Assembly (NCBI GenBank): GCA_002432565.1
Contig: DJFP01000137.1
Location: 3,353-17,094 of the forward strand
DNA length: 13,742 nt
Direction: 5' to 3'
Source of the DNA: Flavobacteriales bacterium UBA5869
GTDB taxonomy: Bacteria > Bacteroidota > Bacteroidia > Flavobacteriales_D > Crocinitomicaceae
Below, in pieces: positions 7,562 through 12,405 of the stretch (within the stretch, counting starts at the first letter, position 1; every line of letters begins with the position of its first letter). The notes beneath the pieces were generated by a model. The model saw only the letters and a list, made by a program, of their open reading frames with translations. It was not told where the DNA came from and ran no database searches. The translations under genes and the position numbers were made by a program.

Positions 7562-8338
7562 TTAATTTGAAATTAATTCCTCGTAAGCATCCTGTATTTC
7601 CAAAAAACGCTGGGCATGCACTTCCCTTTCCGCCTCATCCAGCTCCGGATTACTATCCGGATGGTACTTCTTTGCAAGCCTGCGGTAACTCTTTTTAATA
7701 TCCTCTTCTGTTGCTGTCGGACCCAAATCCAGGATTGCAAGCGCCATATTCTTCCTGGTACGGGAATTGGCAATCGTATGCAAACGCTCATTTCCGACTG
7801 AAGAACCAAAAATTCGTTTGCGGTATTCAATAACTCTTTTTTCAATATACCCGGACTGCACCCCAATCAATTCACCCAATCGAACTAAGGCTGTAAATTC
7901 CCGATCAATCATGTCTTCATCCACAAACACCAGGTCCACAAGGAAATCAATCAAATCAGCGCGCTCCTGGGCCTGGTGCATTTTCTGAACGACCCAGTTT
8001 GCCACACTCCGCACGTGAATGGATGTTTCTTCAACCAGCTCCAATTCGTTCGCAACTATAAGCGATTCTATGTTAAACTTTTTATTTATATAAACAACTA
8101 TAAACGACTGTTTTTCAAAAGATTTAACTGCATTTTTACGCATCATCCAGGCAGCCAGAAGCACATAGATCTGGAAGATCATTTTTTCTGTTTTTTTACC
8201 GGAAGGAGGTTGGAAACTACGTTTAAGAACCAATTCCGAACTGACTTTCCGCTCGCTGGAATCTTTCACCTGGCGTTTGATCAGCACCAAAATAAGCACA
8301 CAGAAAACCACTGCGAATATGATCCCTAGTATTAGCAT
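7562..8338 (-). CDS. J1: membrane-anchored TerB-J-domain protein, DjlA-like
   Basis: 258 residues in the DjlA layout. A membrane anchor starts at the N-terminus (about 2-20), followed by basic IKRQVK, which places the rest in the cytosol. A divergent TerB-like helical domain covers about 57-170, its second half recognisable as LIDFLVDLVFVDEDMIDREF. The J domain is at about 197-258, with helix II KKSYRRLAKKY, HPD at 226-228 and helix III ending AYEELISN. The intact HPD predicts that it stimulates DnaK ATPase and recruits DnaK to the membrane. There is no glycine/phenylalanine linker, zinc finger or substrate-binding domain, so it is not a general DnaJ. It starts 1 base after the J2 stop, so the two genes are surely co-transcribed. 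It is the only one of the four with no lead-in before its anchor. It could equally be called DnaJ-domain protein; the client is unknown. Confidence 0.85.
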   Translation of the reverse strand: MLILGIIFAVVFCVLILVLIKRQVKDSSERKVSSELVLKRSFQPPSGKKTEKMIFQIYVLLAAWMMRKNAVKSFEKQSFIVVYINKKFNIESLIVANELELVEETSIHVRSVANWVVQKMHQAQERADLIDFLVDLVFVDEDMIDREFTALVRLGELIGVQSGYIEKRVIEYRKRIFGSSVGNERLHTIANSRTRKNMALAILDLGPTATEEDIKKSYRRLAKKYHPDSNPELDEAEREVHAQRFLEIQDAYEELISN

Positions 8339-8339
8339 A

Positions 8340-9170
8340 TCACAAATTTACAATAGATTCATATGCCTCCTGAATGGAACGGAATTTTTCACCCATCTGC
8401 TTTTGAACTTCGGGAGATTCGTTCATAAATCGGTCCGGATGGGTCAGTTTAACCAACCTGCGATAGGCAGCTTTTACCTCTTCCATTGAAGCGCTTTTTT
8501 CAAGTCCTAAAACACCATAAAGAGAATCCCTATCATAGGAAGTCGCCGAAGATTGATAACTTCTTTCATTTTTCTGCGTCAGCTTCTCCTGGTAAATTGT
8601 TTCAAAATCTGTAATTTCAAGGTTCAACTTATTCATTAAAGTTAATAAGTAGCGCTGCTCATTATCATTGATCCCTCCGTCATACAAAGCAATTCCCGCC
8701 AGAAAATTGATCAGTTTCACTTTCCAAACTTTCTTAAGGTTCCTGTTAGACCAATCAGCAAGTGAATTAATCCTCACCACATGCCTCATGGAATAGGCAT
8801 ACGATTCTTCTGCATAGTAATATTCGTGTCTGAAATTCTTCTTCAGATAGTTATCAATATACGGAAACTTCATGTAGTAATTATCCAAATCCCGAACAAC
8901 GATGGCACACGCAGAGGCTATAAAAATCTCAAATAAATTCTCTTTAGTCGGGAGAAAGTTTAACGGAATAATCCCCCTATCCCATTCTGTTCCGGTTTCA
9001 TAATCTCCTTTTTCACCTTTATCGGTCAGATTCTTATAGATCACATAGCCAAAGCATCCGACAAACAAAGCAATTACGAAAACAGCTGTCCATAAGCGTT
9101 CCTGGTCCGACATTTGGGTATTTCCCACATGAACTCTCGGAAACAAAAGAAACCATTGAACCTGCGACAT
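8340..9170 (-). CDS. J2: membrane-anchored TerB-J-domain protein, DjlA-like
   Basis: 276 residues. A short hydrophobic lead-in (MSQVQWFLLFP) and a polar stretch precede the membrane anchor at about 27-46. The TerB-like domain spans about 80-195; its second motif, ALYDGGINDNEQRYLL (161-176), is the best kept of the four. The J domain covers about 212-276: LYGVLGLEKSASMEEVKAAYRRLVKL, HPD at 244-246, and a C-terminal helix ending EAYESIVNL. The expected role is recruiting DnaK to the inner membrane. The start is ATG one base after the DUF3820 stop; M20 is an alternative, which would remove the lead-in but keep the anchor. It shares its layout, but only modest residue identity, with J1, J3 and J4, so the duplications are old. 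Confidence 0.85.
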   Translation of the reverse strand: MSQVQWFLLFPRVHVGNTQMSDQERLWTAVFVIALFVGCFGYVIYKNLTDKGEKGDYETGTEWDRGIIPLNFLPTKENLFEIFIASACAIVVRDLDNYYMKFPYIDNYLKKNFRHEYYYAEESYAYSMRHVVRINSLADWSNRNLKKVWKVKLINFLAGIALYDGGINDNEQRYLLTLMNKLNLEITDFETIYQEKLTQKNERSYQSSATSYDRDSLYGVLGLEKSASMEEVKAAYRRLVKLTHPDRFMNESPEVQKQMGEKFRSIQEAYESIVNL

Positions 9171-9171
9171 G

Positions 9172-10331: not shown

Positions 10332-11540
10332 TTAGCTCAAATTAGCCAAATCAAAGACATATTTCGTCCCTAAACCGCTCGTATCAAGTTCAAACGTTCC
10401 TTCCAGCTGTTCCGACATAGCCTGAATAATCTCCGTTCCGAATGAAGCAACCGAATCATCCATCCAGGAACCATTATCGCTGTAATGCAGGAAGAAACGG
10501 TCGGATTTATGCTCATCACTTTCAAGAAGACTGATCGAAATTTCCGGGTTTTCCTGTTCCGAAAAGGCATGTTTCAGGGAGTTCAACAGCAATTCGTTGA
10601 TCAAAAGTGCCAGCGGAACAATACTTTTCGACTTCATATCTACCACTTCTACCCGGATAAGGACAGCCGGTTTCTTACCAATCGCATAATTCAATAAAAG
10701 ACTATCTACCAACGATTTCAGGTATTTTTCAAGATCAAACTTAGACAAAGAACCCGATTGGTACATTTTTTCGTGAATGATAGCCATAGCCGTGACGCGA
10801 TCAATAGCTTCCTGGTAAGAACTACTGTTTTCTCCATTCATGTTATTTGCCTGCAGACGGAGTAAACTGGTGATGATCTGCAGGTTATTCTTCACCCGGT
10901 GATGAATCTCACGCAGCATTACCTCCATTTCCGAATTCTGCTTGGAAATCAGCTTATTCTGATTGGAAAGTTTCTGATTGTTCTCGATCAACTCAACCCG
11001 GGAATAATTGGTTGTCAGGATGTAAAGGTTCAAAATATAAGCAATTGCAAATCCAACGATGGAATACTCCAGGATAAAAGTCGTCACATCATTTCCTGAA
11101 AAAGACTCCACCGCAACAATATTTCTTTCATGCAGGTAAATCAGGTAATAGAACAAGACCAGGAAATGCGCCACCAGGATCGGAATCCCCCATTTTTTTC
11201 CAAGTACGAAAAACGTAAACATGATATTGACGATCATCCACATCGGTGTGAGATAGTGCGTTGCATGCAGCCAAAGAAAAGCCCCCGAAACGATGAAGAA
11301 AGTCAGGATGGAACAAATGGCTCCGACCAGCCGGTAATTTTTGGTCCAATAAATCACGATAAGTCCGAGCACACACATTCCGACTGCAAGGAAATTGGGA
11401 GTTGCACTAAAATGCTCGTTGGAAAGATTGACAACCGTAACTATGGACATCAGGCCGGCAAAAAAATACAATAAATGCAATACCAACCGGAATTTCATTT
11501 TTTCATGAAACTCTAACCAGTTCGTGTTCAGTTTGTCCAT
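10332..11540 (-). CDS. Six-TM sensor histidine kinase, HisKA_2 type
   Basis: 402 residues. The N-terminal half has about six membrane segments (roughly 17-37, 48-65, 70-91, 98-114, 118-136 and 154-175), with little between them, so the signal is probably membrane-linked. A coiled stretch (181-208) leads to the HisKA_2 dimerisation box EIHHRVKNNLQIITSLLRLQ (211-230); H214 is the likely phosphate acceptor. The ATP-binding domain has an N-box INELLLNSLKHAF (314-326), a G1-like DNGSWMDD (355-362) and the C-terminal motif SFGTEIIQAMSEQLEG (366-381). G1 lacks the second glycine of DxGxG; related Bacteroidota kinases also vary here, so activity is not excluded. No response regulator or receiver domain is in the window, so it is an orphan kinase. 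It lies between J4 and J3, with 64- and 47-base gaps. Confidence 0.9.
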   Translation of the reverse strand: MDKLNTNWLEFHEKMKFRLVLHLLYFFAGLMSIVTVVNLSNEHFSATPNFLAVGMCVLGLIVIYWTKNYRLVGAICSILTFFIVSGAFLWLHATHYLTPMWMIVNIMFTFFVLGKKWGIPILVAHFLVLFYYLIYLHERNIVAVESFSGNDVTTFILEYSIVGFAIAYILNLYILTTNYSRVELIENNQKLSNQNKLISKQNSEMEVMLREIHHRVKNNLQIITSLLRLQANNMNGENSSSYQEAIDRVTAMAIIHEKMYQSGSLSKFDLEKYLKSLVDSLLLNYAIGKKPAVLIRVEVVDMKSKSIVPLALLINELLLNSLKHAFSEQENPEISISLLESDEHKSDRFFLHYSDNGSWMDDSVASFGTEIIQAMSEQLEGTFELDTSGLGTKYVFDLANLS

Positions 11541-11604
11541 TATTTAGATTTCAATAACAAATAAACGTCAAATTCTTGATTTTAAGTCTGTATGACAAAA
11601 AAAC

Positions 11605-12405
11605 TTATTGACCATTCATTTCAGAAGCGAGTATTTCATAAGCCTTTTGAATTTCCAAAAACTTTGAAATATGTTCTTTTCTCTCTGTTTCACTAGCCTG
11701 ACGGTGATTATCCGGATGGTGAATTTTTACCAATTTTCTGTAAGCGCTTTTAACCTGTGTCCGAGTTGCATCCTGATCAAGACCTAAAACATTAAAATAG
11801 TATACCCTATTTTCTTTTTGGATAAATACTTCAGGCTGTTTTTCTTCGATCAATAATTTCCTTACTGACTCATCCAACAAGTCGATATCCACGTTCAATT
11901 TCCGAAGCAGGTAAAAAATCAACTCAGACTCCCTGGAATTAATACATCCATCAGTATGAGCTAATTGAATTACAAATTCCAGTAAATAGATCTTCTTTGT
12001 TTTATCCAGGTATTTATTGGTCCAGGCAACCAACTTTTGAATCTTTATTCCTTCAGAAGCAATCAATTCGTAGGAGCTTACCACTTCTTCCTGATCTTTA
12101 TTCAGGTAATTTCTTATCCAGGATAATTTTTCCCGGATCGAATATTTTTCCTCGCGGTATGCGATGACGCATCCGAAAGCGACAAGAATCTTCGTGTAAT
12201 TTTTGTCGGAATACTTAAAATTAGAAGGAAAACCTGTTTCCTTCCAAAATCCACCATCATTTCTAAACCAAGGAAATAGCAATACAGCAATTACAATAAT
12301 GAATGGAATTGCTATAAGAAATGTGCCTTCCCAACCAATATCCCCTCCCTGACCTGAGGTGTAAGGGTAATTTCTTGGTACGCGAAAATCAAGAAGAATA
12401 AACAC
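11605..12405 (-). CDS. J4: membrane-anchored TerB-J-domain protein, DjlA-like
   Basis: 266 residues from a GTG start. GTG at 12405 is the only usual start: an in-frame TAA lies three codons upstream, and no in-frame ATG or TTG occurs before the membrane anchor. It begins 11 bases after the pepD stop, so it is probably coupled to it. A hydrophobic lead-in (MFILLDF) and a glycine-rich polar stretch precede the anchor at about 28-47. The TerB-like domain spans about 72-178, with IAYREEKYSIREK in the first half and LAHTDGCINSRESEL in the second. The J domain covers about 202-266: YYFNVLGLDQDATRTQVKSAYRKLVKI, HPD at 230-232, and EIQKAYEILAS near the end. As with its paralogues, the expected role is DnaK recruitment at the inner membrane; the client is unknown. 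Confidence 0.85.
   Translation of the reverse strand: MFILLDFRVPRNYPYTSGQGGDIGWEGTFLIAIPFIIVIAVLLFPWFRNDGGFWKETGFPSNFKYSDKNYTKILVAFGCVIAYREEKYSIREKLSWIRNYLNKDQEEVVSSYELIASEGIKIQKLVAWTNKYLDKTKKIYLLEFVIQLAHTDGCINSRESELIFYLLRKLNVDIDLLDESVRKLLIEEKQPEVFIQKENRVYYFNVLGLDQDATRTQVKSAYRKLVKIHHPDNHRQASETERKEHISKFLEIQKAYEILASEMNGQ

What the first reader, a model, noticed from the sequence alone, without database searches (positions are those of the whole stretch)
7562..12405. Cluster of four divergent DjlA-like J proteins with an orphan histidine kinase
Seen: four same-strand genes, each with an N-terminal membrane anchor, a TerB-like helical domain and a C-terminal J domain with intact HPD, spaced by one six-TM HisKA_2 kinase and a DUF3820 gene. 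Known: DjlA, with the same layout, is a DnaK co-chaperone that in E. coli affects the Rcs envelope-stress kinase pathway; it is normally a single gene. Inference: here membrane-bound DnaK recruiters and a sensor kinase may form one envelope-sensing module, the paralogues dividing clients or forming a hetero-oligomer. I know of no described system with four TerB-J proteins and a kinase in one cluster.
Basis: partly seen in the sequence, partly recalled or inferred. Interest (0 to 1): 0.8.

Follow-up and report, generated by a model that had tools for sequence, protein, structure and literature searches.

The report
Shuffled membrane J-protein array with kinase
A freshwater Bacteroidota genome carries, in one likely operon, four membrane-anchored helper proteins for the chaperone DnaK beside a sensor kinase; relatives keep the site but change the number and identity of the helpers, and one helper here has had most of its sequence swapped for a distant version.

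Summary
In detail: four same-strand genes encode anchor + TerB-like + J-domain (HPD) proteins, with a six-helix HisKA_2 kinase and a DUF3820 (PF12843) gene between them. The genus is Fluviicola. In 14 of 14 Fluviicola genomes the site between pepD and mnmA carries J genes, but 1 to 4 of them (four in 2 of 14). The kinase is present in 11 of 14; the three genomes without it have one J gene at the site. Outside the genus, 8 of 8 tandem TerB-J arrays examined lack the kinase.

New here: J4, the gene after pepD, is a recombining cassette. Against sister genome G008, eleven neighbouring proteins are 95-100% identical, J4 40.6%. The breaks lie at the end of pepD and at J-domain helix II, so anchor and TerB part were exchanged and the end of the J domain kept. 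Two deep J4 classes disagree with the kinase tree; J3 shows one similar case.

Best reading: DjlA-like membrane DnaK recruiters sharing one DnaK, diversified by duplication, loss and allelic exchange; the kinase is a probable but unproven partner. New variant of a known kind.

The parts
12417..13739 (-). pepD-like M20 dipeptidase (5' end outside the window); conserved upstream flank of the site
   Evidence: TIGR01893 516 bits; in 14 of 14 loci
11605..12405 (-). J4: anchor + TerB-like + J domain; sporadic, allele class I, swapped against sister genome G008
   Evidence: PF00226 53.7 bits; 40.6% identical to G008; two deep classes
11770..12430 (-). exchanged segment: end of pepD to J-domain helix II; 41-68% nt identity to G008 in 60-column blocks (80% in the two edge blocks), against 85-100% in gap-free blocks outside
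10332..11540 (-). histidine kinase, six N-terminal helices, HisKA_2 + HATPase; H, N and G boxes present by eye
   Evidence: PF07568 88.7 bits; model mean pLDDT 79.8; fold match to HWE-type kinase EL346 4r39
9451..10284 (-). J3: anchor + TerB-like + J domain
   Evidence: PF00226 34.5 bits, TerB 22.2 bits sub-threshold; 61 other proteins listed, one of them very weak, many with PF05099 precomputed
9172..9393 (-). DUF3820 / PF12843 small protein (73 aa); seen in 13 of 14 loci (not in G009)
   Evidence: 110.4 bits; order table
8340..9170 (-). J2: anchor + TerB-like + J domain; 1-nt gap to DUF3820 upstream
   Evidence: PF00226 51.0 bits; NF006948 (DjlA) 60.2 bits, cut-off 162
7562..8338 (-). J1: anchor + TerB fold + J domain; J1-like gene in 14 of 14 genomes, in 13 at this site and in G003 on another contig; nine form the close J1 clade; 1-nt gap to J2
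   Evidence: model
   Evidence: tblastn match, 63-99% identity, in 13 of 13 other loci; no Pfam match
7130..7162 (-). terminator-like hairpin (13 pairs, T run) that could end the transcript
   Evidence: pattern scan only

Best explanation
A genus-specific, rapidly remodelled array of DjlA-like co-chaperones, probably one transcript from pepD or J4 to J1. Each J protein sits in the inner membrane by one N-terminal helix. Its TerB-like domain, perhaps with the anchor, chooses a membrane or envelope client or site, and its J domain brings and fires the single DnaK there. The paralogues differ in what they choose and are gained, lost and exchanged by homologous recombination, which can replace anchor + TerB in one step while leaving the end of the J domain. 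The kinase most likely reports a membrane state to an unlinked response regulator and is co-made with the J proteins, either as their client or to adjust the same envelope process. Shown: gene content, domains (TerB fold for J1), recurrence, purifying selection, cassette exchange. Inferred: transcript, DnaK recruitment, client choice, kinase coupling.
For: Domains and fold. Tight same-strand packing, gaps of 1-64 nt, with 1 nt at DUF3820/J2 and J2/J1. J genes at the site in 14 of 14 Fluviicola genomes, kinase in 11 of 14, J count 4 (2 genomes), 3 (7), 2 (1), 1 (4). Purifying selection G000/G008: dN/dS 0.04 J1, 0.09 J2, 0.05 J3, 0.06 kinase. J4 exchange: 40.6% aa against 95-100% for 11 neighbours; nt breakpoints; J4 dS 1.64 against 0.12-0.38 for the neighbours; class I/II split 100/100 while the kinase tree groups G000(I), G008(II) and contig 86652(II) at 98/97. 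J4 is the lowest of 4 homologous pairs in anchored gaps among 61 anchor genes of median 97.9%. One full-length Hsp70 in each of 3 single-contig genomes. In E. coli, DjlA needs its J domain and membrane anchoring to loosen IgaA-RcsD (PMC11709261, passages); Caulobacter DjlA aids an efflux pump and needs HPD (PMC10754441, passages).
Against: Kinase and extra J genes separate (G004 has the kinase and one J gene; 3 genomes have a J gene and no kinase). The whole region is syntenic in the genus, pepD and mnmA included, so adjacency is weak evidence of partnership. Multi-J and kinase are confounded by descent; only G005, sister of G002 in the J1 clade, is a likely joint loss. Among J1-J3 orthologues the J domain is not more conserved than the middle part (66-75% against 63-87% over six pairs), so 'variable chooser, constant J' is not a general pattern. 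E. coli DjlA still worked with a foreign (MalF) anchor, so the anchor itself may choose nothing (PMC11709261). Low GC of J4 does not mark it as foreign: it is 36.1% here, but also 37.9% in G008 and 38.5% in G012. Control: gene gain and replacement also occur at other sites. No Bacteroidota-type promoter pattern was found, so co-transcription is untested.
Confidence: 0.5

Rival explanations
1. The kinase is a bystander: a tandem family of DjlA-like genes and one of about ten HisKA_2-type kinases matched in this genome share a site by history, with no joint function.
For: 8 of 8 arrays outside the genus lack the kinase; kinase matches are multi-copy, 11 in G000 and 8-13 in the other ten kinase-positive Fluviicola genomes, some matching only over the kinase core; the 46%-identical kinase in G037 has no J gene in its 15-kb locus; all of pepD-mnmA is syntenic.
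Against: Kinase stays on the same strand, between pepD and the J genes (or after J4), in 11 of 11 genomes that have it; in G011 an IS1595-type transposase gene lies upstream of the kinase, which remained with three J genes; extra J genes are absent from the site wherever the kinase is absent (3 of 3).
Confidence: 0.35
2. The J genes are in conflict with phages or other parasites that use DnaK, and J4 alleles are swapped to escape or to recognise them.
For: Allelic exchange in J4 and one case in J3; the TerB domain has been speculated to act in phage defence (statement in PMC11709261); a phage-encoded J protein that binds DnaK is known (PMC3486835, abstract in listing); one 6.5-kb record labelled phage matches 77% of J4 at 23.5% identity.
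Against: No convincing PADLOC match (best E 0.0027); 0 of 26 matching phage records cover 80% of J4, and all but that one of the 20 listed match the J domain only; J1-J3 are under ordinary purifying selection.
Confidence: 0.1
3. Redundant, decaying duplicates without a distinct role.
For: J count at the site varies 1-4 and three of four J genes can be absent.
Against: dN/dS 0.04-0.09 for J1-J3; intact frames and HPD at the site in the genus; J1-like gene in 14 of 14 genomes; J3 gave 61 other listed proteins.
Confidence: 0.05

Closest known systems
DjlA (E. coli; DnaK co-chaperone, Rcs activator)
   Same: N-terminal membrane helix, TerB-like middle, C-terminal J domain with HPD
   Different: All four score far below the DjlA equivalog cut-off (33-60 bits against 162); several paralogues in one array with a kinase; no Rcs proteins recognised in the row
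Other TerB-J arrays in the family and one other family of the order (G016, G021, G023, G057, G131, G146, G168, G172)
   Same: 2-3 adjacent TerB-J genes on one strand
   Different: No HisKA_2-type kinase found within the fetched flanks and none at the pepD-mnmA site; flanks of G016, G021 and G146 are cut by contig ends
HWE/HisKA_2 kinases (EL346, Brucella LOV-HK)
   Same: Same kinase core by Pfam and by fold
   Different: Six-helix membrane part in place of a LOV domain; no response regulator listed near: 34 kb or more away in three single-contig genomes, none listed on contig C61 here (list truncated)

Membership tests
DjlA family of DnaK co-chaperones | N-terminal membrane anchor | tested here: met
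   one N-terminal hydrophobic stretch in each of 4; J1 helix 2-31 in model
DjlA family of DnaK co-chaperones | TerB-like middle domain, J1 | tested here: met
DjlA family of DnaK co-chaperones | TerB-like middle domain, J2-J4 | tested here: inconclusive
   Pfam TerB sub-threshold in 3 of 3 (15.7, 22.2, 14.9 bits); not modelled; aligned to J1 only
DjlA family of DnaK co-chaperones | C-terminal J domain with HPD | tested here: met
   PF00226 over cut-off and HPD in 4 of 4
DjlA equivalog NF006948 | score over the curated cut-off of 162 bits | tested here: not met
   39.4, 60.2, 33.4, 43.1 bits for J1-J4: DjlA-like, not DjlA
DjlA family of DnaK co-chaperones | binds and stimulates DnaK | not testable with these tools
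   contact residues conserved by eye only (recalled positions)
HisKA_2 sensor kinases | HisKA_2 dimerisation domain with phospho-acceptor His | tested here: met
   PF07568 88.7 bits; IHHRVKNN invariant in the 30 aligned rows
Known anti-phage systems (PADLOC) | significant match to a defence protein model | tested here: not met
   6 proteins, best E 0.0027

The most novel reading that the evidence does not exclude
The site is a diversity locus for Hsp70 targeting: an array of membrane J proteins whose anchor + TerB 'choosers' are exchanged between strains as cassettes by recombination into the conserved helix II/HPD stretch, re-aiming one shared DnaK at different membrane clients, with a co-made kinase that reads the outcome.
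Probability: 0.2. Interest if true: 0.75.

Novelty: new variant of a known kind. Interest (0 to 1): 0.45.

Why it matters
What DjlA-type proteins choose, and what TerB domains do, is open. A genus where the same site holds one to four paralogues, with and without a kinase and with a natural domain swap between sister genomes, is a ready comparison set: it separates anchor/TerB from J domain on one background and can show whether client choice lies in the exchanged part.

Tried and rejected
Rejected: (1) 'four J genes + kinase' as a fixed system: only 2 of 14 genomes have four. (2) Point-by-point diversifying selection on J4: dS is 1.64 against 0.12-0.38 in the neighbours, so it is replacement by a distant allele. 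(3) Defence system and phage or plasmid cargo: no strong PADLOC hit, 0 of 26 phage records covering 80% of J4 (one 77% match at 23.5% identity), J2 on 2 plasmid records by partial matches, PHROGs hits of the J proteins fall mostly on the J domain. (4) RNA families or tRNAs: none. (5) Bacteroidota-type promoter pattern (recalled consensus): none in the window, 0.57 expected by chance. (6) DUF3820 structure: no PDB sequence better than E 0.18.

Limits. G000 is a draft of 84% completeness, so a chimeric assembly at J4 is not fully excluded, but class I J4 alleles of 58, 66 and 77% identity occur in other sources with a kinase on a contig of the same length. Pairing of J4/J3 with kinase rests on equal 'longest contig' lengths, an inference. 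In one search I used 74 of the 120 listed kinase clusters (7352 passed) and assigned this window's contig length to its own kinase cluster by hand; 26 of 62 listed J3 clusters shared a length with a kinase cluster, of J3 clusters on contigs of 4 kb or more 23 of 44 did; 25 pairs were analysed, one dropped for length. One search lists only part of the response regulators. Papers: searches listed no paper on TerB-J arrays with a kinase; most subscription journals are not held.
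Full report

Where it lives. The genus group held here has 14 genomes including this one.

How the site varies. In 14 of 14 genomes the site between pepD and mnmA carries at least one J gene. J count: four in G000 and G008; three in G002, G006, G007, G009, G011, G012, G013; two in G001; one in G003, G004, G005, G010. A J1-like gene is in 14 of 14 genomes, in 13 at the site; in G003 the gene at the site is another J protein and the J1-like one is on another contig. 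The kinase is present at the site in 11 and absent in G003, G005, G010; in those three one search gives only distant kinase matches (best E 2.3e-25, 2.6e-56, 8.0e-29). pepD, DUF3820 and the J gene lie on one contig in each, so the gap is not a contig end; G003 is only 83% complete. DUF3820 is seen in 13 of 14 (not in G009). All genomes with two or more J genes at the site have the kinase (10 of 10), but G004 has the kinase with one J gene. G005 is sister to G002 in the J1 clade (100/99), and G002 has the kinase and three J genes, so one joint loss is likely; the other contrasts are not independent.

Outside the genus. With a 29-row profile, 150 of 150 family genomes searched (a sample, completeness 85% or more, 13 of them Fluviicola; G000 is listed at 84.42%) gave 2-8 matches at E <= 1e-12 (an upper bound, plain J-domain proteins can pass). 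Eight tandem arrays were read: G016 and G172 (3 genes), G021, G023, G057, G131, G146, G168 (2 genes); none had such a kinase within the fetched flanks, those of G016, G021 and G146 being cut by contig ends. One single-J locus (G152) has a related kinase with an ion-channel gene on the other strand between it and the J gene.

The swap. Between G000 and its close sister G008, eleven proteins around the site are 95-100% identical but J4 is 40.6%. In 60-column blocks DNA identity is 85-100% in gap-free blocks outside and 41-68% across about 12430-11770, with 80% in the two edge blocks. The left edge is in the last codons of pepD or just after; the right edge is at the codons for J-domain helix II just before HPD, after which identity is about 90%. 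J4 has dS 1.64 and dN 0.54 against dS 0.12-0.38 in the neighbours. Its GC, 36.1%, is low, but so is that of the other class (37.9 and 38.5%), so GC does not mark the swap. In the search of 5.8 billion proteins J4 has few close relatives: five others of its class (54-83%) and three of the G008 class (39-41%), while the kinase list holds dozens over 80% and J3 gave 61 other listed proteins, one of them very weak. For seven kinase/J4 pairs the J4 tree splits classes I and II at 100/100; the kinase tree (12 rows) puts G000 (I), G008 (II) and contig 86652 (II) together at 98/97, with class I also in three lineages outside. After HPD, G000 J4 is 82% identical to G008 but 76, 59 and 50% to three members of its own class, so the gene is a mosaic. 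Pairing by equal contig length is an inference.

J3. Contig 87603 has a kinase 95% identical to that of contig 147798, but J3 at 71%, and it falls outside the J3 group (99/97) that holds its two kinase sisters. Close pairs such as 11344/2083304, 34040/766832, 19616/25171 and 5599/13834 agree between the two trees. Deeper placements differ in other ways too: the kinase tree puts 11344/2083304 nearer G000 than 34040/766832, the J3 tree the reverse, with modest support on the kinase side (94/91). Whether that is exchange or poor resolution is open.

Control. I compared 568 G000 and 347 G008 mechanical reading frames from partial samples of both genomes. Of 61 anchor genes (85% or more, median 97.9%, those of this site included), 11 anchored gaps held something; four had homologous pairs, at 82.9, 75.2, 69.6 and 40.6%, the last being J4; seven had none. 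So J4 is the extreme, but gene turnover is not confined to it.

Function. J1-J3 are under purifying selection (dN/dS 0.04-0.09). One full-length Hsp70 was found in each of three single-contig genomes, so the paralogues would share one DnaK. E. coli DjlA needs its J domain and membrane anchoring to loosen IgaA-RcsD, but its anchor could be replaced by MalF helices (PMC11709261, passages only); Caulobacter DjlA, without an anchor, supports an efflux pump and needs HPD (PMC10754441, passages only). I therefore read the array as DjlA-like DnaK recruiters with different choices of client. That is inference. The kinase as partner is more likely than not in my view, but its adjacency is weak evidence because the whole region is syntenic. 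In G013, G002 and G011 the nearest listed response regulator is about 73, 80 and 34 kb away (list truncated).

Against my reading. Among six J1-J3 orthologue pairs the J domain is not better conserved than the middle part, so the swap does not show that the anchor/TerB part is the usual target of change. The kinase and extra J genes can be separated. Transcription is untested.

Change on checking: facts were mended (G003's J1-like gene lies elsewhere; J3 trees agree less than first written; one 77% phage match; GC of the other J4 class; MalF anchor).

Noticed in passing
window 7181-7369 (-): Small ORF of about 62 aa after J1, conserved in 13 of 13 other Fluviicola loci (63-99%), no Pfam match.
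   Followed up: partly
L089 17491-19838 and the same place in relatives: Upstream of pepD: an ABC ATPase with two ABC domains and a row of small membrane genes (one matches DUF5362), several in tandem in most relatives, a second expanded family beside the J array.
   Followed up: no
G000:C23:7706-9398: The dnaK match of this draft genome is split over two frames with stops inside, probably an assembly error; left as is.
   Followed up: no
L077 5688-6656: IS1595-type transposase gene between DUF3820 and the kinase in G011; the kinase stays with three J genes.
   Followed up: partly
L142 4268-7208: In another genus a related kinase, an ion-channel gene (other strand) and a single TerB-J gene lie side by side.
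   Followed up: no
L113 (CP034120.1): Record titled Glaciecola amylolytica carries this Fluviicola locus; the name looks wrong.
   Followed up: no
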